From assembly GCF_000219605.1 (NCBI RefSeq), contig NC_015740.1, positions 4,030,001 to 4,094,000 of the forward strand: DNA of 64,000 bases, written 5' to 3'. Within the stretch, counting starts at the first letter, position 1. Every line of letters begins with the position of its first letter. Both the position numbers and the translations under genes were made by a program. A model generated the notes under the pieces. That model was not told the origin of the DNA and ran no database searches. It saw nothing but the letters and a program-made list of their open reading frames with translations. The stretch comes from Stutzerimonas stutzeri. Lineage in GTDB: Bacteria; Pseudomonadota; Gammaproteobacteria; Pseudomonadales; Pseudomonadaceae. Below are positions 38,621 through 53,436 of the stretch, in pieces.

Positions 38621-40042
38621 TCAGCGGGCGCGGATCTTCTCGACGATGGCGGTCGTCGAGCTGTTCTCCACCAGCCCCAGCACCTTCACCACACCGCCGT
38701 AGGCCTTGACCAGATCGGCACCGACGACCTGATCGACGCCATAGTCGCCTCCCTTGACCAGCACATCGGGTCGCACCTGGGCCAGCAGGTTTTCCGGCGT
38801 ATCCTCGGAAAAGCACACCACCCAATCCACCGCTTCCAGACCGGCCAGCACCGCCATGCGTCGATCCACCGAGTTGATCGGCCGGCCCGGGCCTTTGAGG
38901 CGGCTCACCGAGCCATCATCGTTCACCGCCACCACCAGCCGGTCGCCCTGGGCCCGGGCCTGCTCGAGGTAGGTCACATGGCCGGCGTGCAGGATGTCAA
39001 AACAGCCATTGGTGAAGACGATCTTCTCGCCCTCGGCGCGGGCATCCTCGACTACGGTGAGCAGCTGCTCGACGGTCATCACGCCACGCTCGGAGCCTTC
39101 TTCGCGTTGCACCGCGCGGCGCAGCTCCGGCGCGCTGATGCAGGCGGTGCCCAGCTTGCCGACCACGATACCGGCGGCCAGGTTGGCCAGTGCCACGGCC
39201 TGTGGCAGTTCCTCGCCGGCCGCAATCGCAGCGGCCAGGGTTGAAATGACGGTATCGCCGGCACCGGTGACATCGAACACCTCGCGGGCACGGGCCGGCA
39301 GGTGCAGCGGCGCATGATCGGGACGCAGCAGGGTCATGCCGTGCTCGCCACGAGTGACCAGCAACGCATCCAGCTCGAGCCGGCTCATCAGCTCGGCACC
39401 CTTGCTGACCAACTCGGCCTCGTCGGCACAATGCCCGACGATCGCCTCGAATTCGCCCAGGTTAGGCGTGATCAGCGTAGCGCCGCGATAGATGTCGAAA
39501 TCCTTGCCCTTGGGGTCGGCCAGCACCGGAATGCCACGGTGCCGCGCCGCCTGGATCAGCGCCTGATGGTTCTTCAGCGCGCCCTTGCCGTAGTCCGACA
39601 GCACCAGCACCTTGACCCCGGCCAGCAGCCCTTCCACCTCGGCCAGCAACGCGGCCGGATCGGTGTTGAACGGCTCCTCGAAATCCATGCGCAGCAGTTG
39701 CTGATGGCGACTCATCACCCGCAGCTTGACGATGGTGGGCTGGTCATCGATGCACTGGAAATGCGCCTGCACACCGGCAGCCGCGAGGCTGTCAGCCAGG
39801 CTCTGACGCGCCTCGTCCTCGCCGGTCACGCCCACCAGCGCCGCGGCTGCCCCCAAAGCCGCGATGTTCAGCGCGACGTTGGCCGCACCACCTGGGCGAT
39901 CTTCGATCTGCTCGACCTTCACCACCGGCACCGGTGCCTCGGGCGAGATCCGCGACGTACCGCCATGCCAGTAACGATCGAGCATGACGTCACCGACCAC
40001 CAGAACGGCGGCTTGGTCGAAACGGGGCATGGACAGCTTCAT
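38621..40042 (-). CDS. hldE: Bifunctional heptose-7-phosphate kinase/heptose-1-phosphate adenylyltransferase
   Basis: 473 residues. The N-terminal ~320 residues form a PfkB/ribokinase-type sugar kinase ([27 protein letters not shown]). The C-terminal ~150 form a nucleotidyltransferase with [20 protein letters not shown] and its HxGH motif. It makes ADP-D-glycero-β-D-manno-heptose precursors for WaaC and WaaF, encoded in the same window. Confidence 0.97.
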
Positions 40043-42415: not shown

Positions 42416-44223
42416 CAGACGCCCTGCTCATCCGATACGTCGTCCTGAAACTGCGTCGCATGAAGCCTCGCGTAGGCACCGTTCGCCGCCAGCAGCTCGG
42501 CATGGGTGCCACGCTCGACGATGCGGCCCTGCTCCATCACCAGGATCAGATCGGCCTTCTCGATTGTGCTCAGGCGGTGAGCGATGACCAGCGTGGTGCG
42601 GCCCTGCATCACATGGTCCAGAGCCCCCTGGATATGCCGCTCGGACTCGGTATCCAGCGCCGAAGTCGCTTCGTCAAGAATCAGCACGGGGGCATTCTTG
42701 AGCAGTGCACGCGCAATCGCCAGGCGCTGCCGCTGTCCACCAGACAGCAGCACGCCGTTTTCCCCGACGAGAGTCTGATAGCCCTCGGGCATTTGCTCGA
42801 TGAACTCGTCGGCGTAGGCATCGCGCGCGGCACGGCGGATGTCGTCCAGCGGAGCGCCGGCCAGATCGCCGTAGGCGATGTTGTTCGCCACGGTATCGTT
42901 GAACAGGGTCACCTGCTGCGTCACCAGGGCGATATGCCGGCGCAGGTTGCGCAACGTGTAGGACTCGACGTCCGCGCCGTCCAGCAGGATATGGCCGGTC
43001 TCATGGTGGTAGAAACGCGGGATCAGATTGGCCAGTGTCGACTTGCCGCTGCCGGACCGACCGACCAGCGCGACCATCTGCCCGGGCTCCACGGTGAAGC
43101 TGATGTCGTGCAGTACCGGCTTGTCGCTGCCCGGGTAGACGAAATTGAGGTTGCGCACTTCCAGACGTCCGCTGACCGAATCGCGCTCCAGCGTGCCAGT
43201 GTCGATCTCCGGCTGCTCGTCGAGCTGCTCGAAGATGCTATCAGCGGCGGCCAAACCTTTCTGAATATTGGCGCTGACTTCCGACAGCTGGCGGATCGGC
43301 TTGGGCAGAAGGCCGGCAGCGGTAATGTAGGCGACTAGGTCGCCGGCGGTGGCATCACCGCGCAACAGCAGTACCAGGAACATCAATACTGCCATCGCGC
43401 TATAGATCAGCAATTGCAGAGTCGGTGTATACACCGCACCTGTCTTGACCATGCGCAGTTGCTTGTCTGTGTTGCTCCGACTGGCATGCAAGAAGCGCCC
43501 CTGCTCATAGCGCTCGCCCCCGAAGCTGCGCACCACCCTATATCCCTGGATGGTTTCCGAAGAGACATGGGTAACATCCCCCATTGCCACTTGGATCTTT
43601 TTGCTCTGCTTGCGGAATTTCTTGCTGGCGCTGTTCACCACCAAAGCGATGACCGGCAAGATCGCCAGCATGACCAGTGTCAACATCCAATTCATCCACA
43701 GCAGGTAAGCGAACAGGAAGATCACTGTCAGCCCCTCGCGGATCACCACCTTGATCGCATCGGTCGCAGCACCGGTCACCATGGTCACGTTGAAGGTGAT
43801 CCGAGAAATCAGATGGCCGGAATTATGCTGATCGTAGTAGCGATTGGGCAGCGTTAGTAGGCTGTTGAACAATTGCACGCGCAGATCGTGTACCAGGCCA
43901 AGCGAGACGCGAGCCAGGTAGTAGTTGCCTAGAAACGAGCCGAATCCCTGCCAGGCAGCGATAACCACAATCAACAGAGGCACTGCGTGCAATAAAGGCA
44001 GCTCAGCGAGCCAGGGCACACCTGGGAACAACGCAGCATCAGGATTGCTCAATCCGTCAACGAAGTACTTGAGGATCCCTGCCAGCATCGGCTGAGTCGA
44101 AGCAAAGATCACGTAGCCGATGATGCTGACCAAGAAATAGCCGATGTAGGGCTTTACATAGGTCAGCAGGCGGAAATAGATCTTGAGGCTGGAGGCTGCC
44201 TCCTGCCTGGGAGCTTCTGTCAT
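42415..44223 (-). CDS. msbA: Lipid A export ATP-binding/permease protein MsbA
   Basis: 602 residues from ATG 44223 (MTEAPRQEAASS). Half-size ABC exporter: six membrane helices in the first ~320 residues, then the nucleotide-binding domain with Walker A GRSGSGKST (about residue 387), signature LSGGQRQRLAIARAL and Walker B VLILDEATS. It flips lipid A–core from the inner to the outer leaflet of the inner membrane. Confidence 0.96.
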   Translation of the reverse strand: MTEAPRQEAASSLKIYFRLLTYVKPYIGYFLVSIIGYVIFASTQPMLAGILKYFVDGLSNPDAALFPGVPWLAELPLLHAVPLLIVVIAAWQGFGSFLGNYYLARVSLGLVHDLRVQLFNSLLTLPNRYYDQHNSGHLISRITFNVTMVTGAATDAIKVVIREGLTVIFLFAYLLWMNWMLTLVMLAILPVIALVVNSASKKFRKQSKKIQVAMGDVTHVSSETIQGYRVVRSFGGERYEQGRFLHASRSNTDKQLRMVKTGAVYTPTLQLLIYSAMAVLMFLVLLLRGDATAGDLVAYITAAGLLPKPIRQLSEVSANIQKGLAAADSIFEQLDEQPEIDTGTLERDSVSGRLEVRNLNFVYPGSDKPVLHDISFTVEPGQMVALVGRSGSGKSTLANLIPRFYHHETGHILLDGADVESYTLRNLRRHIALVTQQVTLFNDTVANNIAYGDLAGAPLDDIRRAARDAYADEFIEQMPEGYQTLVGENGVLLSGGQRQRLAIARALLKNAPVLILDEATSALDTESERHIQGALDHVMQGRTTLVIAHRLSTIEKADLILVMEQGRIVERGTHAELLAANGAYARLHATQFQDDVSDEQGV

Positions 44224-44336
44224 GACGGATCTCGCCCGCAAAAAGGGGCGGCAATCTTAACACTCCTGCTGGCATGGCCGCGCCCCGCCGAGATCAGGCA
44301 TCATATGCGGCTCCGCGATCATTGAGGCGCCAATAC

Positions 44337-44954
44337 GTGCTGACGTTTACTCCGCTGCCCGCAGCCATGCTGGACGAGCTGATCATAGGCGCCCGGATAC
44401 TGGAGCAGGACAGCTTCGGCCCCAAGGTATACCAACTGCGCGACGGCAACATGCTGAAGCTGTTCCGCCGCAAACGCCTGCTATCTTCAGCACTGCTGCG
44501 CCCACACTCACGGCGTTTCTGTGCCAATGCGACAGCTCTGCAAGCACTCGGCATTCCGACCCTGCAACCGCTCTATCTCTACCGTCTGGGCGACCCGGCC
44601 TGGACTGCCGTGCTCTATCGCCCGTTGCCCGGTGAAACCCTGTCCCAGCTTTTGCGCGAGAACGACCTCTCCTGGATGACGCTACAACCTGAACTAGCAC
44701 GCTTCATCAACCATCTGCACGCTAGCGGCGTGTACTTCCGCTCTCTGCATCTGGGCAATATCGTCCGCACCCCGAACGGCCAGCTCGGTCTGATCGACAT
44801 CGCCGATCTGCAGATCCGGCGTCGCCCGTTGAGTGAGAACCTAATCAGGCGCAATCGCGCACATTTCGATAAGTACCTGCGAAAGGAAGGGTTTCCCTTC
44901 GATAGCGCATCGCTATGGGCCTGTTGCGACGACATTCGGCCTGAGCAGCGCTGA
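44337..44954 (+). CDS. LPS-kinase-like protein (PA4998 type)
   Basis: 205 residues from GTG 44337, with GAGG about nine bases upstream; the frame is open back to an ATG at 44274. Kinase-fold features: LINxLHASGVYFRSLHLGNIV in place of the catalytic HxDxxxxN loop, and LIDIADLQI for the metal-binding Asp. Divergent from msbA and convergent on waaL. Related proteins lie in the same place in P. aeruginosa. Substrate unknown; a core-sugar kinase is the best guess. Confidence 0.65.
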   Translation: MLTFTPLPAAMLDELIIGARILEQDSFGPKVYQLRDGNMLKLFRRKRLLSSALLRPHSRRFCANATALQALGIPTLQPLYLYRLGDPAWTAVLYRPLPGETLSQLLRENDLSWMTLQPELARFINHLHASGVYFRSLHLGNIVRTPNGQLGLIDIADLQIRRRPLSENLIRRNRAHFDKYLRKEGFPFDSASLWACCDDIRPEQR

Positions 44955-44977
44955 GGCAACGCGCCCCAGCGACAGCG

Positions 44978-46132
44978 TCACTCCGGAGCGCCAGCGCGTT
45001 GATTGATGATCAGAGCCATCGGCAGCAATATCAGCAGCCAGAGCTCGTCGGGATTGCCGACCAGTTTGCTGCCGTCGAAGTTCAGTACCACCAATGCCGT
45101 AAACAGGTAAAGCCCCCAGGGGTCGCGCTGTTGCCAAGCTCGCTGGAGTACCACAACCACCAGCGCAAGGAATATCAGTAAAGACACGAGGCCGCTATAA
45201 AGACCGAGCGCCATGTAAATATTGTGCGGATGCTGGATAGGCGCGCCGCCCAGGATTGTTGCCTCGGTGGTGTACTGCATGCCACAACCCAACCACAATC
45301 CGCACTCGAACCACTCCCCGGCAAGGATGCGCCACAGCTCAAAACGACCTGCATCGGCGCGCGCGAATAGGCTTGCCACCTCGGGCACCTCGCGCGTGAC
45401 AAAAAGAGTCAACATGGCAAGCAGCGCACAGACGAAACCCAGCCATAGCAGATAGCGCGCCCGATGCAATGCCAGCCAGCCACCGACCAGACCGCCAATC
45501 AGCAGCATGCCAATTAGCCCCGAGCGGCTCTGCAGCACATAGGCCATGCAAAACACAGCCAGCAGCGCGGCAGCGGACAGCTCCAGCCAGCGTCGCTGAC
45601 TCAGCCAAGTCGGTAGCGCCAAGGCAAAGCAGCACGCCAGCCACATGCTGGTGTAAATGGGGCCGGTCATCCGCCCTGGCAGCCAGAGCACCCGCTCGCC
45701 AAAGGCATAGCGACCGGTGAGCCAATAGACCACAGCCGAGCCCAGCACATAGACGCCCAGTATCCAGAATAGTCCGCGAGAGAATAGCGGCATGCGCAGC
45801 GGCTCCGGATCCACCAACTGGCTCACCACCAACACGAACAGCACCATATAAAGCACATGCTTGAAATACTGCCCGTCCGCTGACAGCGCGCCAACGACCA
45901 CAAACCAGGCGCATAGGGCGACCCAAAGCCACAATGCAACAGACTGCTGAATACCGCGCCCCCGGCGCAAGAGCAGCACCCCTAAAGCCGGCAATGCCAG
46001 CAGAACGTAATAGACGTTGTTGACCATCTTGCTGGTCGGTAGCAACAGGAAACTTACGATAAACAGCAGTAAAGCAGGAGTGAAATAGCCGAACCGCCCT
46101 TCTAGTCCCTTCAAGCGCTGTACGACGGTCAC
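44978..46132 (-). CDS. waaL: O-antigen ligase
   Basis: 384 residues from GTG 46132, which overlaps the preceding stop (GTGA) and has GGAG seven bases upstream. About ten or more membrane helices. The large periplasmic loop around 255–300 includes RFELWRILAGEWFECGLWLGCG and HPHNIYMALGLYSG, matching Wzy_C. It joins undecaprenyl-linked O antigen to lipid A–core in the periplasm. It is the last gene of the minus-strand core operon, downstream of the IS lesions. Confidence 0.88.
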   Translation of the reverse strand: MTVVQRLKGLEGRFGYFTPALLLFIVSFLLLPTSKMVNNVYYVLLALPALGVLLLRRGRGIQQSVALWLWVALCAWFVVVGALSADGQYFKHVLYMVLFVLVVSQLVDPEPLRMPLFSRGLFWILGVYVLGSAVVYWLTGRYAFGERVLWLPGRMTGPIYTSMWLACCFALALPTWLSQRRWLELSAAALLAVFCMAYVLQSRSGLIGMLLIGGLVGGWLALHRARYLLWLGFVCALLAMLTLFVTREVPEVASLFARADAGRFELWRILAGEWFECGLWLGCGMQYTTEATILGGAPIQHPHNIYMALGLYSGLVSLLIFLALVVVVLQRAWQQRDPWGLYLFTALVVLNFDGSKLVGNPDELWLLILLPMALIINQRAGAPE

Positions 46133-46887
46133 AGGATTACTCCACACAGAAAGCCAACTACGAACATTGCTACCAGTCGCAACCGCTCATGCTTCTTGCG
46201 CCGCGCCTTCTTGGCGCGCTCCTCGGGTACGCTGACATGGTCGCCGAAACCAGTATGCAGCACGGCATCATTTTCCAAGATCAGCGCATGGCGCTGTTCG
46301 TTGGCATAAAGCCTCGAAAGCTCCTTCTCGCCGGCATGCTGCGCGTAGGGAGCATGTCGCTGGTAGTCGACCAGGCGACGCAGTCCGGGATTGAAAGAGA
46401 AGCCCTGCCAGTCTTCTTTTTGCGAACCGACCCGATAGCAAGGAATGCCTTGAATCACTTGGCGCTCTCCCAGATAAACGTATGGGCTGTGAATCGCCAA
46501 ATCGTGGGCAAAGCTGCGCAACCAGACCTGCAGAGCCTGCGGATCGGCCTCCAGCAACACCTTCGACTCCTCGATAAAGCCCGGCCGGTAGAATGCCCAA
46601 TCGTCTTCGCAGTGAAATACCCACGGCGTCTCTACGTGCGAATATGCCAAATCGATGGATCGCAGCTGTCCCAGCCGCGGCACATTGACAAAGAACGTGG
46701 TGTGCTCGCGCCAGTGGTGGGGGATGCAGGCTTCCACCGCCCTATCACCCGAATCTTCGGTGATGAACACTTCGCGGATCGGCGTTGTATTGAAGGCATC
46801 GAAGCTCGCTAACGTCCGAGTAAGCAGGTCGAAGCGCCCGCAACTGGTCACCACCAAAGTGACGTTACTGTCCTTGGAAAAGATCAA
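46129..46887 (-). CDS. Glycosyltransferase family 2-like protein with C-terminal membrane anchor
   Basis: 252 residues. GT-A features: NVTLVVTSCGRFDLLTRTL at the N-terminus and a DxD-type HCEDDWAFY near residue 92. Basic stretch KKARRKKHERLR then one C-terminal helix (VAMFVVGFLCGVIL). Start TTG 46887, three bases past the upstream stop, with GAGAGG at eight bases. Overlaps waaL by four bases. Probably adds an outer-core sugar. Confidence 0.72.
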   Translation of the reverse strand: MIFSKDSNVTLVVTSCGRFDLLTRTLASFDAFNTTPIREVFITEDSGDRAVEACIPHHWREHTTFFVNVPRLGQLRSIDLAYSHVETPWVFHCEDDWAFYRPGFIEESKVLLEADPQALQVWLRSFAHDLAIHSPYVYLGERQVIQGIPCYRVGSQKEDWQGFSFNPGLRRLVDYQRHAPYAQHAGEKELSRLYANEQRHALILENDAVLHTGFGDHVSVPEERAKKARRKKHERLRLVAMFVVGFLCGVIL

Positions 46888-46890
46888 TAT

Positions 46891-47763
46891 TCAAACCTCT
46901 CGAAAACCCTGGGGAGTAATGCTCCAGGTATCCTGTACCGCCAGTGAGGCATCGCCGAGCAGCTCATTTTCGCTATAGGCTGGCCAGGCATCGCACTTCC
47001 AGCCAATGAAGTGGAAGTAGGGAAACTCCCGCTCGCCGTCTCGGTCGTTGAGCAGTCTCCCATGCTGCCAAACCCAGCGTCGTGGAAAATCGAAACTACC
47101 ATCGTGCCAGGCAATCCGACCATTGGGCGTACTGAAGGCTTCGATGAACTCGCTGCAACGCCGCCAAGGATTGCACGCATCAGCCAGCTGTCGCAGCGGC
47201 TTCGGCCAACTCTTGTGACGGATGAACAGCCGACTGAACGCCCCTTCGTCGAAAGCGTTGTGTTCGCTGGACGCCAGCTTTGCCTGCCAGCCAGGCACCT
47301 GCATGAAGGCTTCGCACATCCGAATATTGTTGCGCAGCAGGCACAGATGGCCAGAGATGCGCCGCTCATGGGTAGAGAGTAGATCGACACGCTGCAGCCG
47401 CTCGGCGCTGAAATAGCTTCGCAGGTCGCCATACACCAAGTCGATATCGCTGAACCCCCAGAAGTCGAAGCCCACCAACTCGTCGGCATGCACATATCCC
47501 AGCGCCGGCTTCAAATCGCAAAGTTTGTAAGGGCTTTGCGGCCGAAAATCGATGCGCAGCCGAGCGGAGACCGTGGTGCAATAGTCGTCAAAACTCATTG
47601 CCCGAAAGCGCACGTTGTCTGGCGCATTAGGCGGCGTGCCGCAATCAGTGAAGAACAGCCACTGCACGTCCGGATTGAAACGGCAGCTCTGCAGGAAAAA
47701 CGGCAGCCAGAATGGCCAGCGGCCGAAATAGGGGATAAGAAATAGCAGACGCGGTGTGGTCAT
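46891..47763 (-). CDS. DUF6625-type protein, probable glycosyltransferase
   Basis: 290 residues from ATG 47763. FLIPYFGRWPFWLPFFLQSC at the start and FWGFSDIDLVYGDL (DxD-like) suggest a GT-A fold. Located between the IS21-broken glycosyltransferase and a GT2 gene, so an outer-core role is likely. Its specific reaction is not known. Start ATG lies two bases after the broken gene's stop codon. Confidence 0.6.
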   Translation of the reverse strand: MTTPRLLFLIPYFGRWPFWLPFFLQSCRFNPDVQWLFFTDCGTPPNAPDNVRFRAMSFDDYCTTVSARLRIDFRPQSPYKLCDLKPALGYVHADELVGFDFWGFSDIDLVYGDLRSYFSAERLQRVDLLSTHERRISGHLCLLRNNIRMCEAFMQVPGWQAKLASSEHNAFDEGAFSRLFIRHKSWPKPLRQLADACNPWRRCSEFIEAFSTPNGRIAWHDGSFDFPRRWVWQHGRLLNDRDGEREFPYFHFIGWKCDAWPAYSENELLGDASLAVQDTWSITPQGFREV

Positions 47764-47889
47764 GCTCAGACGCCCAGACGATTACGCAGCCGGCAAAACC
47801 AGCCGGGAGTCGGAGCGGACCGCAAGGGAGCCTGCATGGCCTGCACGACTTCGGCGCCGATGCGCGCGAAGCTATAACGCGATTCGGCC

Positions 47890-47896
47890 AGCATCC
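47890..47896. repeat. IS21 target-site duplication, left copy
   Basis: AGCATCC immediately outside the left end; an identical copy lies at 50517–50523 outside the right end. A 7-bp duplication is within the known IS21-family range. Confidence 0.9.
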
Positions 47897-47900
47897 TGCG

Positions 47901-48016
47901 GATTCCACGGTCATCTGGCCACCCATTCCATGAGCATCTGACCACCGATTCCACGGTGATCCGGCCACCCATTCCACGCGTATCCGACCACTGATTCCAC
48001 GGCCATCCGGCCACCC
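47901..48016. repeat. Left subterminal repeats of the IS21 element
   Basis: Five copies of ATTCCAC-GG…ATC-GGCCACC start at 47901, 47925, 47947, 47971 and 47993, with alternating 24- and 22-bp spacing. These are likely transposase-binding sites, as known for IS21-family ends. Confidence 0.85.
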
Positions 48017-48085
48017 AACCGGGTAGGCAGCTACGCAGGATTTCTTCACTACCATCGACCTCTTTTTCGAAGCAGAGAGGTCGTC

Positions 48086-49615
48086 GTGGAGCGTTTATCC
48101 ATGCGTAAGATTCGCGAAGTACTTCGTCTCAAGTTCGAGGTCGGGCTATCGGCTCGCCAGATTGCGGTCAGCGTGCAGATCGGTCGTGTCACCGTCGGCG
48201 ATTACCTCAACCGCTTTGCCGCCAGCGGCCTCAGTTGGCCCTGTTCGTTGTCCGATTCCGAGCTGGAACAGCAGCTGTTCCCACCGGCGCCGGCAGTGCC
48301 CAGCGAGCAGCGGCCACTGCCTGATTGGTCTTGGGTGCATGCCGAGCTACGCCGGCCGGGCGTGACCTTGGCGCTGCTCTGGCAGGAGTATCGCCTGAGC
48401 CAGCCGAAAGGCTTTCAGTACAGCTGGTTCTGCGAGCACTACCGGGCCTGGCAGGGCAAGCTGGACGTGGTGATGCGCCAGGAGCACCGCGTCGGCGAGA
48501 AGTTGTTCGTCGACTACGCCGGGCAGACGGTGCCGGTGATCGACCGCCACAGCGGCGAGATCCGCCAGGCGCAGGTGTTCGTCGCGGTGCTCGGTGCGTC
48601 CAGCTACACCTTCGCCGAAGCCACCTGGTCGCAGCAGCTGCCGGACTGGCTGGGCTCGCATACCCGCTGCTTTGCCTTCCTCGGCGGCGTGCCGGAGATC
48701 GTGGTGCCGGACAACCTGCGCAGCGCGGTGAGTAAGAGCCATCGCTACGAGCCGGACATCAACCCGAGCTACCGCGATCTGGCCGAGCACTATGGCGTGG
48801 CGGTGGTGCCGGCGCGGGCGCGTAAACCGCGCGACAAGGCCAAGGCCGAGGTCGGCGTGCAGGTGGTCGAGCGCTGGATCCTCGCCGCGCTGAGGAATCG
48901 GCAGTTCTTCTCCCTGGATGAACTCAACAGCGCCATCGCCTTATTGCTGGAGCGGCTCAACCGACGACCGTTTCGCAAGCTGCCGGGCTCCCGGCAGTCG
49001 GCCTTCGAAGCTCTGGATCGTCCGGCGCTGCGCCCCCTGCCGGAGCAACCCTACGTCTACGCCGAGTGGAAGAAGGCGCGGGTGCACATCGACTACCACG
49101 TCGAGGTCGATGGGCACTACTACTCGGTGCCGTACCAACTGGTGAAGAAACAACTGGAAGTACGCCTGACAGCGCGCACGGTGGAGTGCTTCCACGCCAA
49201 TCAGCGGGTGGCCAGTCACCTTCGCTCAATGCACAAGGGCAGGCACAGCACGCAGGCCGAGCACATGCCCAAGAGCCATCGCGAGCATGCCGAGTGGACG
49301 CCGCAGCGGCTGATCCGCTGGGCCGAGCAGACCGGGCCGAACACGGCCGGCGTGATCCGGCACATCCTCGAACGGCGCATCCATCCGCAGCAGGGCTACC
49401 GGGCCTGCCTGGGCATCCTGCGCCTGGGCAAGACCCATGGCGAAGTGCGCTTGGAGTTGGCCTGCCGTCGCGCCCTCAGCCTCGGCGCGTGCAGCTACAA
49501 GAGCCTCGAATCGATCCTGCGCCAGGGGCTGGAAAACCTGCCGTTGGCTCAAGCCAACCTGCCCCTGCTGCCGGACGACCACGCCAACCTGCGCGGCCCC
49601 GCCTACTACCACTGA
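48086..49615 (+). CDS. istA: IS21-family transposase IstA
   Basis: 509 residues from GTG 48086, with GAGAGG upstream. N-terminal helix-turn-helix (SARQIAVSVQIGRVTVGDYL), then an integrase core: LFVDYAGQTV (first Asp), VVPDNLRSAVS (second Asp) and DKAKAEVGVQVVE (Glu). Followed by istB after 17 nt, as in the family. Performs strand transfer with the IstB helper ATPase. Confidence 0.95.
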   Translation: MERLSMRKIREVLRLKFEVGLSARQIAVSVQIGRVTVGDYLNRFAASGLSWPCSLSDSELEQQLFPPAPAVPSEQRPLPDWSWVHAELRRPGVTLALLWQEYRLSQPKGFQYSWFCEHYRAWQGKLDVVMRQEHRVGEKLFVDYAGQTVPVIDRHSGEIRQAQVFVAVLGASSYTFAEATWSQQLPDWLGSHTRCFAFLGGVPEIVVPDNLRSAVSKSHRYEPDINPSYRDLAEHYGVAVVPARARKPRDKAKAEVGVQVVERWILAALRNRQFFSLDELNSAIALLLERLNRRPFRKLPGSRQSAFEALDRPALRPLPEQPYVYAEWKKARVHIDYHVEVDGHYYSVPYQLVKKQLEVRLTARTVECFHANQRVASHLRSMHKGRHSTQAEHMPKSHREHAEWTPQRLIRWAEQTGPNTAGVIRHILERRIHPQQGYRACLGILRLGKTHGEVRLELACRRALSLGACSYKSLESILRQGLENLPLAQANLPLLPDDHANLRGPAYYH

Positions 49616-49632
49616 CCCCAAGGAATCCCACC

Positions 49633-50388
49633 ATGCTGCCCCATCCGACCCTGGACAAGCTCCAGACCCTGCGCCTGACCGGCATGCTCAAGGCACTCGC
49701 CGAGCAACTGAAAACCCCCGACATCAACAGCCTGAGCTTCGAGGAACGCCTCGGCCTGTTGGTCGACCGCGAACTGACCGAACGCGACGACAAGCGCCTC
49801 AGCAGCCGCCTGCGCCAGGCCCGGCTCAAGCACAACGCCTGCCTCGAAGACATCGACTACCGCAGCCCGCGCGGGCTGGATAAGGCGCTGATCCTGCAAC
49901 TGAGCGGCGGCCAGTGGCTACGCGACGGCCTCAACCTGATCATCGGCGGCCCCACCGGCGTGGGTAAAACCTGGCTGGCCTGCGCCCTGGCCCACCAGGC
50001 CTGCCGAGAGGGTTACAGCGTGCGTTACCTGCGCTTGCCACGCCTGCTGGAAGAGTTGGGCCTAGCCCACGGCGACGGGCGCTTCGCCAAGCTGATGAGC
50101 GGCTATGCCAAGACCGACCTGCTGATCCTTGATGACTGGGGTCTGGCCCCGTTCACCGTTGAACAGCGCCGTGACATGCTGGAGCTACTGGACGACCGCT
50201 ACGGCCAGCGCTCGACCCTCGTGACCAGCCAAATGCCCGTGGACAACTGGCACGAACTGATCGGCGATCCGACCCTGGCCGATGCCATCCTCGACCGCCT
50301 GGTGCACAACGCTTATCGGATCAACCTCAAGGGCGAATCGATGCGCAAACAGACGAAGAAATTGACGACACCGGGCACCTCAGACTAA
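49633..50388 (+). CDS. istB: IS21-family helper ATPase IstB
   Basis: 251 residues from ATG 49633, with AAGGAA upstream. AAA+ protein: Walker A GGPTGVGKT (about 105–113), Walker B LLILDDWGLAPF, and sensor region TLVTSQMPVDNW. IstB assists target selection and transposition by IstA. Intact. Confidence 0.95.
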   Translation: MLPHPTLDKLQTLRLTGMLKALAEQLKTPDINSLSFEERLGLLVDRELTERDDKRLSSRLRQARLKHNACLEDIDYRSPRGLDKALILQLSGGQWLRDGLNLIIGGPTGVGKTWLACALAHQACREGYSVRYLRLPRLLEELGLAHGDGRFAKLMSGYAKTDLLILDDWGLAPFTVEQRRDMLELLDDRYGQRSTLVTSQMPVDNWHELIGDPTLADAILDRLVHNAYRINLKGESMRKQTKKLTTPGTSD

Positions 50389-50424
50389 CAATGCAACCCC
50401 TGCGTCGCTGCGCTCCGACTGCCC

Positions 50425-50516
50425 GGCCGGATGGCCGTGGAACAGGTGGCCAGATGGCCGTGGAATGCCTGGCCAGATGAGCGTGGACTGGGTGGCCGGA
50501 TGGTGTGGAATCCGCA
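50425..50516. repeat. Right subterminal repeats of the IS21 element
   Basis: Four inverted copies of the left motif, GGCC-GGATGGCCGTGGAA and variants, end near 50442, 50465, 50487 and 50510 at 22–23-bp spacing. Confidence 0.8.
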
Positions 50517-50523
50517 AGCATCC
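50517..50523. repeat. IS21 target-site duplication, right copy
   Basis: AGCATCC, identical to 47890–47896. Confidence 0.9.
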
Positions 50524-51370
50524 GGCCGTTGACGGCAATCCTCGCTGCCCAAGCCGGATCGGCACGCAGTTGCGCCAGCTTGTCACACAGCTCGACGACC
50601 GTCCGGTAGAGCACCAAATTTTCCATGTCGACGAAGCCCAGCGCGCGGTTTTCCTCCTCGCCCTGATCGTAGGCCAGCAGCACGCAGCCACAGGCCATGG
50701 CCTCGAAGTTCTTGATCATATACTCGCCCATACCCACGTCAGCGCTGACGAAAAAGCGGATGCGGTTGAGGGTGTTGAGATACTCCTCTCCGGAATTGGT
50801 GCGTGTCACCACCAGATTCTCGACCTTCGCCAGCTCGTCCAGCAGCGCCTTGCGTCCGCTGTAGGCGACGCTTTTCGTACTGCCAACGAAGCCCAGTTCG
50901 ATATCCCGCTCGTATCCAAGGTCGCGCAACAGGGCTTGGTCGTAGCCTTTGGGCACGAACACGGCATCGACACCTTCCTGACGCAGACGCTTACTTACCA
51001 CATATCCAGAGCTGATAACCCGCGCCCAAGGCAGCTTGTGGTAGTGCGCGCTGAACTTGCCGGTGTACTTGCAGCGTATGTAGTTCTGGTAGGCGTCATG
51101 TTCGAGAATCACCAGATTCGGCACACTGCGGATAAAGTCCACTTGGCGAATTTCCTGCTTAAAGCGCAGGAAGAACAGGATGCGCTCGTATCTGGCCACG
51201 TCCACATGGTCACGAAAATAGCGGCGGAGGTTGGCCTGATCGTCACGCCCCAACCAACGAATGTCGCATTCGCAGCTCCTTTGGATACCCTCATAGAGAC
51301 GATCCAAAATGGCACGCTGCTCAGATTGAACAAGGAAAAGAATCTTCATAGCACCACGTACCTAGTATCC

Positions 51371-51374
51371 CTAA
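51371..51374. repeat. IS5 target-site duplication, left copy
   Basis: CTAA, with a matching copy at 52567–52570. The target fits the YTAR preference of the IS5 subgroup. Confidence 0.8.
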
Positions 51375-52566
51375 GGAAACTCTGAAGAAGACTTCCTGAT
51401 TTTGGCAAGATCCCCGGACTCCACTCACCGAGTTTTCCGATGAAGCAGATGACCTTCGCCGATGCCGAGTACGCCGGCAAGCGCAAGCAGACCCGCAAAG
51501 AGCTGTTCCTGATCGAGATGGATCGGGTGGTGCCCTGGAAGGGGCTGATAGCCCTGATCGAACCGCACTACCCCAAGGGTGAAGGCGGCCGTCCGGCCTA
51601 TCCGCTGATGGCGATGCTGCGGGTGCATCTGCTGCAGAACTGGTTTGGCTACAGCGATCCGGCGATGGAAGAGGCGCTGTACGAGACCACTATCCTGCGC
51701 CAGTTCGCTGGGCTGAACCTGGAGCGTATCCCCGACGAAACCACCATCCTGAACTTCCGTCGCCTGCTGGAGAAACACGAACTGGCTGCCGGCATCCTGG
51801 CCGTGATCAATGGCTACCTGGGCGACCGAGGTTTGTCGCTGCGCCAAGGCACCATCGTCGATGCCACGCTGATCAATGCGCCGAGTTCGACCAAGAATAA
51901 AGACGGCAAACGCGACCCGGAAATGCACCAGACCAAGAAGGGTAACCAGTACTACTTCGGCATGAAGGCGCACATCGGCGTGGATGACGAGTCGGGTTTG
52001 GTGCACAGCGTAGTAGGCACTGCCGCCAACGTGGCGGACGTTACCCAAGTCGACAAGTTGTTGCATGGCGAGGAAAACGTGGTCTGCGCTGATGCCGGTT
52101 ATACCGGTGTCGAGAAGCGTGCCGAACATGATGGTCGTGAGGTGATCTGGCAGGTGGCGGCACGGCGCAGCACTTACAAGAAACTGGGCAAGAGCAGCCC
52201 GCTTTACAAAGCCAGGCGCAAGATCGAGAAGGCCAAAGCCCAGGTGCGGGCCAAGGTCGAACACCCGTTCCGGGTGATCAAGCGCCAATTTGGCTATGTG
52301 AAGACGCGCTTCCGTGGCCTGGCAAAGAACACCGCGCAACTGGTGACACTCTTCGCGCTGTCGAATCTGTGGATGGCTCGACGACATTTACTGACGAATG
52401 CAGGAGAGGTGCGCCTGTAATGTGGAAAATGGCTGCTGCGAGGTGCTCGCGGCGGCTAAAAACACAGAAATAAGCGGGCGATCTGATCGTTTTTGATCGG
52501 TTGACCGCTTTCAAAATCGGCGGAGGCTGAAGTCAGCCAGAAATACAGGGCTACTTCAGACCATCC
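51375..52566 (+). mobile_element. IS5-family insertion sequence
   Basis: 1192 bp. Imperfect terminal inverted repeats: GGAAACTCTGAAGAAG at the left, and GGATGGTCTGAAGTAG read inward from the right. Flanked by CTAA duplications. One transposase gene on the plus strand; the last ~145 bp are noncoding. It lies between a kinase-like pseudogene and the IS21-split glycosyltransferase, antisense to both. Confidence 0.9.
51440..52420 (+). CDS. IS5-family transposase
   Basis: 326 residues from ATG 51440. DDE transposase: IVDATLINAP (first Asp), VVCADAGYTG (second Asp), and VEHPFRVIKRQFGY (Glu region; Y-R-E-K-like element). Length is typical of the IS5 group. It appears intact, so the element may still move. 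Confidence 0.94.
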   Translation: MKQMTFADAEYAGKRKQTRKELFLIEMDRVVPWKGLIALIEPHYPKGEGGRPAYPLMAMLRVHLLQNWFGYSDPAMEEALYETTILRQFAGLNLERIPDETTILNFRRLLEKHELAAGILAVINGYLGDRGLSLRQGTIVDATLINAPSSTKNKDGKRDPEMHQTKKGNQYYFGMKAHIGVDDESGLVHSVVGTAANVADVTQVDKLLHGEENVVCADAGYTGVEKRAEHDGREVIWQVAARRSTYKKLGKSSPLYKARRKIEKAKAQVRAKVEHPFRVIKRQFGYVKTRFRGLAKNTAQLVTLFALSNLWMARRHLLTNAGEVRL

Positions 52567-52570
52567 CTAA
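52567..52570. repeat. IS5 target-site duplication, right copy
   Basis: CTAA. On the minus strand it reads TTAG and contains the stop codon of the adjacent kinase-like pseudogene. Confidence 0.8.
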
Positions 52571-53436
52571 GGCTCATCTCGGGCAACTTTTATACAGTGA
52601 GCCAAAAACTCCCGCCTAGCGCTTAATGAGAGGAAGACTTTATACCGCAACGAACGAGAAACTTTGCATCGCTTAAAATGGTTATAATAAGTCCAAAAAT
52701 CTTTATTTAAAGGAACCACTGAAGCACCAGCAAACTCACGAGCTAATTGATCATACTCCTGCTCTCGCATAAACTGATAAAACCAGAAGTGATAAAAATA
52801 CCCCATGCAGAACGCCAGACAAAACGAGCGATCAGACACATCGAATGCGCAACACTCAAAGTCAATGAGCTTAAGAGCTCCATCTTTGGCAAGCAGAATA
52901 TTTTTAGGGTGTGGATCCATATGCACAAAACCCTGACCCAGCATATTTTCAAAAAGCTCGAAAATCTTGGGCAAAATTACTTCGGGGGCCACCTGATTAT
53001 TCCTCAACGCCTGATCGACGCTTACGGATCCGTCAAAGTACTCTATAACCAGATACTCGTGCTTGAGCAACCCCATTTCTCGCCGGAACCCTTACCCATA
53101 AACCTGAGGGACCAGCTTGCTTTTAGAAAGTTTCGACAAGTTACTAAACTCATCCAAAAGACAGTATTTATTTTTTGAGGGTAAAAAAGCGAGACTCTTA
53201 CGCAGACGAGACTTCCAATGGCGAATACAATTATACTTAAGTACGGCTCGCTCTGGACTCAATAGGTAAACCGCTCGCCCGTCTTCAACCACGTCCAATG
53301 CAGGATAGACTTTACCTGTAAAAATATAATCATGAGTCAGACTCAAACATTTTTCCGCTTCCTGCAAAAAATAAAAACTGCAGCCCTTATCCCGCGTTAA
53401 ATGAAAGCGACGAGACCAAGAAAAAAAGAAAGGCAT
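52567..53436 (-). pseudogene. LPS kinase-like gene with an in-frame stop codon
   Basis: Read from ATG 53436 this frame would encode 289 residues, but codon 115 (53094–53092) is TAA: …LVPQVYG-stop-GFRREMGLLKHEY. The frame before and after the stop is the same, and the sequence continues as a kinase-like domain: HMDPHPKNILL (HxDxxxxN catalytic loop) and LKLIDFECC (metal-binding Asp). A sense codon such as TAC/TAT would restore VYGYGFRR, a natural family sequence. Base composition is clearly poorer in G+C than neighbours, suggesting transfer. Internal restart at ATG 53076 would lack the N-lobe. Confidence 0.85.

What the first reader, a model, noticed from the sequence alone, without database searches (positions are those of the whole stretch)
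47766..51349. IS21 insertion splits an LPS core glycosyltransferase; excision restores one exact frame
Seen directly: 12-bp inverted ends, identical 7-bp AGCATCC flanks, and a perfect 318-codon frame (NGRMLA–ESRYSF) when 47890–50516 is removed. The insertion is therefore fairly recent, with no decay of the two halves, and probably abolishes one outer-core sugar transfer.
Basis: seen in the sequence. Interest (0 to 1): 0.72.

Follow-up and report, generated by a model that had tools for sequence, protein, structure and literature searches.

The report
IS21 element interrupting an LPS gene
A jumping gene has recently landed near the end of a Stutzerimonas gene that helps build the cell-surface sugar coat, a routine kind of mutation that in related Pseudomonas removes long surface sugars and protects against some viruses.

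Summary
A complete IS21-family element (47897-50516, 2620 bp; 12-bp perfect inverted ends; istA and istB open) lies in a 318-codon glycosyltransferase gene (51349 to 47766, minus strand) between two AGCATCC copies. A natural uninterrupted site exists: Stutzerimonas kunmingensis 28M-8 (L001) carries the 318-aa gene and reads NGRMLAESRYSF; a second intact protein (P0001) reads the same. The two parts here differ from L001 by 7 synonymous and 2 amino-acid changes, without decay. The genome has nine identical full copies of the IS, eight with 5-8 bp duplications: a recent burst. The gene is the probable counterpart of P. aeruginosa ssg (PA5001): 75% identical to a 318-aa P. aeruginosa protein, in the hldE-msbA-waaL-wapH-wapO core cluster. 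Published ssg mutants lose O-specific antigen and resist LPS-dependent phages, so the effect may exceed loss of one sugar. The interrupted gene still encodes a 340-aa fusion that keeps all invariant residues but loses the last GT-B helices; inactivity is inferred. An IS5-type element lies 25 bp upstream of the start codon, and the adjacent kinase gene has an in-frame stop. Ordinary biology.

The parts
47897..50516 (+). IS21-family insertion sequence, 2620 bp, 12-bp perfect terminal inverted repeats, 23-bp-spaced subterminal repeats (four or five on the left, the fifth weak at 61%; three on the right)
   Evidence: nine identical copies in the genome; plasmid copies annotated ISPpu23 are 94.7-95.4% identical
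48086..49615 (+). istA transposase, 509 aa
   Evidence: NF033546 314 bits (cut-off 160), rve and Mu-transpos_C_2 domains
49633..50388 (+). istB helper ATPase, 251 aa
   Evidence: NF038214 278.8 bits (cut-off 200), PF01695 261 bits
47890..47896 (.). target-site duplication AGCATCC, left copy
   Evidence: both copies map to one stretch of L001
50517..50523 (.). target-site duplication AGCATCC, right copy
50517..51349 (-). 5' part of the ssg-like glycosyltransferase gene, residues 1-277
   Evidence: PF13524; 7 synonymous and 1 non-synonymous difference from L001
47766..47896 (-). 3' part of the ssg-like gene, residues 277-318 and stop
   Evidence: 1 amino-acid difference from L001
50327..51349 (-). 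340-aa fusion frame now encoded: native-like to residue 279, then an IS-encoded tail
   Evidence: tail has low model confidence
51375..52566 (+). IS5-type element, 1192 bp, transposase 51440-52420, with CTAA duplication 51371-51374 and 52567-52570; the element ends 25 bp, its duplication 21 bp, 5' of the ssg-like start codon
   Evidence: absent from L001
52567..53436 (-). kinase-like gene next to ssg, split by one in-frame stop codon
   Evidence: a different, frame-changing lesion in L001

Best explanation
An active IS21-family element (ISPpu23-like) transposed into codon 278 of the ssg orthologue of a Stutzerimonas strain, duplicating 7 bp. It is one of nine identical copies from a recent burst. 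The gene now yields, if expressed, a 340-residue fusion that keeps all residues invariant in the family but lacks the last helices of the GT-B fold (285-297, 308-316) and ends in an unrelated tail. Shown: the insertion, the target duplication, the natural uninterrupted site, and few amino-acid changes, which suggests the gene was under purifying selection until lately. Inferred: Ssg activity is lost; the outer core is incomplete and long O-specific antigen is reduced or absent; phages using that LPS bind less or not at all. Whether phage predation selected it or it is a chance hit is open.
For: Ends, duplication and genes. Natural uninterrupted gene in L001 and P0001. Nine of nine full copies 100% identical, eight of nine with duplications of 5-8 bp. 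No second ssg copy in the genome at E<=0.001: the only two hits are the two parts. 31 of 55 other genus genomes have a hit at E<=1e-30 with no stop inside (42-100% identity). Ssg identity: 75% to P. aeruginosa P0119, 957-bp gene as inferred from the PAO1 construct length (passage), core cluster neighbours. Predicted GT-B fold, pLDDT 92.9, with the site inside helix 265-282 and helix 285-297 beyond it. Published ssg-mutant phenotypes (passages).
Against: The residues invariant in the 38-sequence alignment all lie in the retained part; of the nearly invariant ones only F285, G289 and R301 are lost, so residual activity is not excluded. The model of the fusion still draws a helix at 285-297, at low confidence and under the pull of its alignment. 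24 of 55 other genus genomes have no ssg hit at E<=1e-30, so the genus often does without a close form of this enzyme and the phenotype may differ from P. aeruginosa. The papers disagree on whether the common antigen is also lost. No reads or LPS data were available.
Confidence: 0.9

Rival explanations
1. The fusion protein is still active: the IS-encoded tail replaces the lost C-terminal helices well enough, so the insertion is nearly neutral.
For: All columns invariant in the alignment are retained; two native residues after the insertion point (L278, A279) happen to be kept in the fusion; a helix is still drawn at 285-297 in the fusion model.
Against: Residues 281-300 have mean pLDDT 57 and 71 per block of ten in the fusion against 97 and 96 in the intact protein; 37 native residues (282-318) are lost, including three nearly invariant ones. 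That the last helix of GT-B enzymes usually packs against the first domain is recalled, not tested.
Confidence: 0.12
2. The gene was already unneeded or silent before the IS21 arrived, as part of decay of this stretch (adjacent kinase gene broken, IS5-type element just upstream that may cut off expression), so the IS21 hit changed nothing.
For: IS5-type element between the kinase gene and ssg; stop codon in the kinase gene here and another lesion in L001; 24 of 55 other genus genomes lack a strong ssg hit.
Against: The two ssg parts show 7 synonymous against 2 amino-acid differences from L001 and no stop, though this cannot exclude a very recent silencing. The order of the two insertions is unknown.
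Confidence: 0.25
3. The two flanks come from different lineages joined by recombination at the IS, rather than from a simple insertion.
For: Whole-segment blastn identity to L001 is 87.0% on the left flank against 97.6-98.7% on the right.
Against: The windowed profile shows 96-100% in the bins next to the IS on both sides (46500-47899 and 50500-51499); the low identity is confined to about 42.9-46.5 kb. A 7-bp duplication is present.
Confidence: 0.02

Closest known systems
ISPpu23 (IS21 family), as annotated in PLSDB plasmids
   Same: Full-length 2620-bp match, istA-istB order, 94.7-95.4% nucleotide identity for listed copies so annotated (20 of 88 records listed)
   Different: About 5% sequence difference; here nine identical chromosomal copies. 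Other listed plasmid copies (94.2%) carry the name ISPpu7 on istB, so the name is not settled
Pseudomonas aeruginosa ssg (PA5001)
   Same: Same length (318 aa), 75% identity to P0119, same core-LPS gene set
   Different: Here interrupted in codon 278; gene order differs (PIG-L and Mig-14 genes lie between hldE and msbA; a DUF6625 gene and a weakly GT-like gene lie between ssg and the waaL-type gene)
ssg::Gm (Tn5G) mutant SK98 of P. aeruginosa PAK
   Same: Transposon insertion in ssg; that mutant resists phage K8 (passages)
   Different: Laboratory selection with a known phenotype; here a natural IS and no phenotype data
IS21 in mexR of P. aeruginosa (Boutoille 2004, seen only as a reference title)
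   Same: IS21 insertion in a chromosomal Pseudomonas gene
   Different: Different gene and trait

Membership tests
IS21 family insertion sequence | IstA transposase with integrase-type core | tested here: met
   NF033546 314 bits, cut-off 160; PF00665 and PF22483
IS21 family insertion sequence | IstB AAA+ helper downstream of istA | tested here: met
   NF038214 278.8 bits, cut-off 200
[quoted passage not shown]
   12-bp perfect ends beginning TG and ending CA; 23-bp-spaced repeats, four or five left (fifth 61%) and three right; definition from passages
IS21 family insertion sequence | Short direct target duplication (about 4-8 bp, range recalled) | tested here: met
   5-8 bp in 8 of 9 copies, none in L088
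Ssg (PA5001) glycosyltransferase | Full-length sequence relationship to the P. aeruginosa protein | tested here: met
   P0119, P. aeruginosa, 318 aa, 75% identity to the intact L001 protein; P0119 carries no PA5001 label in the output, so the link rests on species, length and cluster
Ssg (PA5001) glycosyltransferase | Position in the core-oligosaccharide cluster with wapH, wapO, msbA | tested here: met
   Pfam/NCBIfam of neighbours against the table in PMC8005017 (passage); WapH and WapO are assigned by family and position only
Ssg (PA5001) glycosyltransferase | GT-B fold with Glyco_trans_1_2 domain | tested here: met
Ssg (PA5001) glycosyltransferase | Needed for outer core and O-specific antigen | not testable with these tools
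   Needs LPS analysis
IS5 family (neighbouring element) | DDE_Tnp_1 transposase and short YTAR-type target duplication (consensus recalled) | tested here: met
   PF01609 and PF05598. Of 8 copies, ends were found in 7: 4-bp direct repeats in 5 (CTAA, TTAG, CTAG, CTGG, TTAG; CTGG does not fit YTAR), a 5-bp repeat CTTAG in 1, none exact in 1, L103

The most novel reading that the evidence does not exclude
This strain lost its O-antigen attachment site under phage attack through successive hits in one surface-sugar stretch (kinase stop codon, IS5-type element at the kinase stop codon, IS21 in ssg) together with an exchanged msbA-waaL block, making the core-LPS locus a hot spot of adaptive loss and exchange in Stutzerimonas.
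Probability: 0.15. Interest if true: 0.4.

Novelty: new member of a known kind. Interest (0 to 1): 0.17.

Why it matters
It documents a recent IS burst that hit a gene known in P. aeruginosa as an LPS-phage receptor determinant, with a natural uninterrupted relative at hand for comparison. It warns that this strain's LPS and phage range may not represent its species. It changes no general picture.

Tried and rejected
Recombination at the IS as the cause of the identity difference between flanks: rejected after the windowed profile. A second ssg copy that could compensate: none found in the genome at E<=0.001. A promoter reading out of the IS: the only promoter-like match in 47.7-52.7 kb (1 found; shuffles 0.9 on average) lies on the minus strand in the ssg 5' part, not in the IS. 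Modelling the fusion to judge its tail: not informative, low confidence. PDB sequence search with the family profile: one weak hit, 5i45_A at E 0.0022. Literature search for a natural IS in ssg: the listings (1 paper; 0; 2; 10 held, 9 listed) show none by title or abstract start; of these papers I saw passages of four, so this is not proof of absence.

Other IS21 copies: 10 of the 13 open flanking pieces located were scanned; 8 of the 10 had a Pfam match: GYF_2, WYL, another transposase (two pieces), a phage-type integrase, a PilZ (YcgR-like) protein and dynamin-like GTPase (two pieces). No LPS gene was recognised among these 10. An open piece beside the IS need not be an interrupted gene. Not pursued.

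Full report
What is there. The window lies in a 4.55-Mb one-contig genome. Among the 80 loci kept from the genome collection, its nearest relative for this stretch is Stutzerimonas kunmingensis 28M-8 (L001). On the minus strand a glycosyltransferase gene starts at 51349 and ends at 47766. Inside its codon 278 lies a 2620-bp element, 47897-50516, with a 12-bp perfect inverted repeat at its ends, istA and istB on the plus strand, and 23-bp-spaced repeats inside each end (four or five left, the fifth weak at 61%; three right). AGCATCC flanks it on both sides.

Empty site. blastn against L001 gives flanks that overlap at one spot. L001 has a 318-aa uninterrupted gene reading NGRMLAESRYSF there, and P0001 (named by its source as from Stutzerimonas stutzeri) does too. 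All 80 loci kept from 383 confirmed matches have an open gene of 317-321 aa. In the genus, 32 of 56 genomes searched have a hit at E<=1e-30: this genome, plus 31 others at 42-100% identity with no stop inside; the least similar of these may not be true ssg. 24 have none at that threshold, and weaker hits were not sought.

Age. Against L001 the 5' part has 7 synonymous and 1 non-synonymous difference in 277 codons, the 3' part 1 non-synonymous in 43 codons, stop included. Nine of nine full IS copies in the genome are 100% identical; eight have duplications of 5, 7 or 8 bp, while L088 has none. The draft genome behind L001 holds only partial matches, the best two at 94-95% over about half the element each; drafts can break at such repeats, so this is weak evidence. 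The burst is therefore probably recent. In PLSDB, 88 plasmid records match and 69 of them hold at least 80% of the element in one place; of the 20 listed the best is 95.4% identical, and copies annotated ISPpu23 are 94.7-95.4%.

Identity of the gene. The 5' part has PF13524; the intact L001 protein reaches no NCBIfam cut-off. The L001 protein is 75% identical to a P. aeruginosa protein of 318 aa (P0119). Neighbours are an HldE-type protein (38621-40042), PIG-L, Mig-14, MsbA (TIGR02203 above cut-off), an O-antigen-ligase-type protein, a GT4 enzyme in the place of WapH, a carbamoyltransferase in the place of WapO, and four proteins with Kdo/WaaP kinase matches. The table in PMC8005017 (passage) lists PA5001 among such genes. 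The PAO1 construct of PMC8406328 was 1,057 bp with 100 bp of upstream sequence, which implies a 957-bp ssg (passage); the 318 codons and stop of L001 are also 957 bp. I therefore call it the ssg orthologue.

Surroundings. An IS5-type element of 1192 bp (51375-52566) with a CTAA duplication sits at the stop codon of the upstream kinase gene; the element ends 25 bp, and its duplication 21 bp, before the ssg start codon. The genome has 8 such matches, 87-100% identical; of the 7 whose ends were found, 5 show a 4-bp and 1 a 5-bp direct repeat, 1 none exact. The kinase gene has one in-frame stop here and a different lesion in L001. From 42.9 to 46.5 kb identity to L001 falls to 69.5-86%, while both sides are mostly 95-100%, with dips to 92-95% near 57.5-58.3 kb and 86% in the last bin; none of the 80 loci exceeds 85% in that block, so one of the two strains has probably exchanged an msbA-waaL block. 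This also explains the low overall identity of the left flank.

Verdict. It is a recent, ordinary IS21 insertion in a known LPS gene. If P. aeruginosa is a guide, the consequence is loss of O-specific antigen and of binding by LPS-dependent phages rather than only one missing sugar; this needs an LPS analysis.

Noticed in passing
window 42900-46500: Only 69.5-86% identical to L001 while both sides are mostly 95-100%: a probably exchanged block covering part of msbA, a kinase-like gene and the O-antigen-ligase-type gene.
   Followed up: partly
window 52567-53436: Kinase-like gene beside ssg is split by an in-frame stop codon; L001 has a different, frame-changing lesion in the same gene.
   Followed up: partly
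window 51371-52570: IS5-type element whose target duplication overlaps the stop codon of the kinase gene, so the stop is kept; it lies 25 bp upstream of the ssg start codon.
   Followed up: yes
L088 1501-4120: One of nine identical IS21 copies has no target duplication, suggesting a deletion or rearrangement beside it; on its right flank a PilZ (YcgR-like) reading frame runs into the IS.
   Followed up: no
L089 (genome 154201-159820): An IS21 copy lies in or between two long open stretches that both match dynamin-like GTPases.
   Followed up: no
P0020: A protein from another source combines a more divergent N-terminal part with a C-terminal part nearly identical to this strain's, which hints at recombination within ssg or a joined assembly.
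   Followed up: no
L001, L021, L022: Three records named Stutzerimonas kunmingensis differ strongly at this locus: 100%, 81% and 80% identity to the query, so the name or the locus is not uniform.
   Followed up: no
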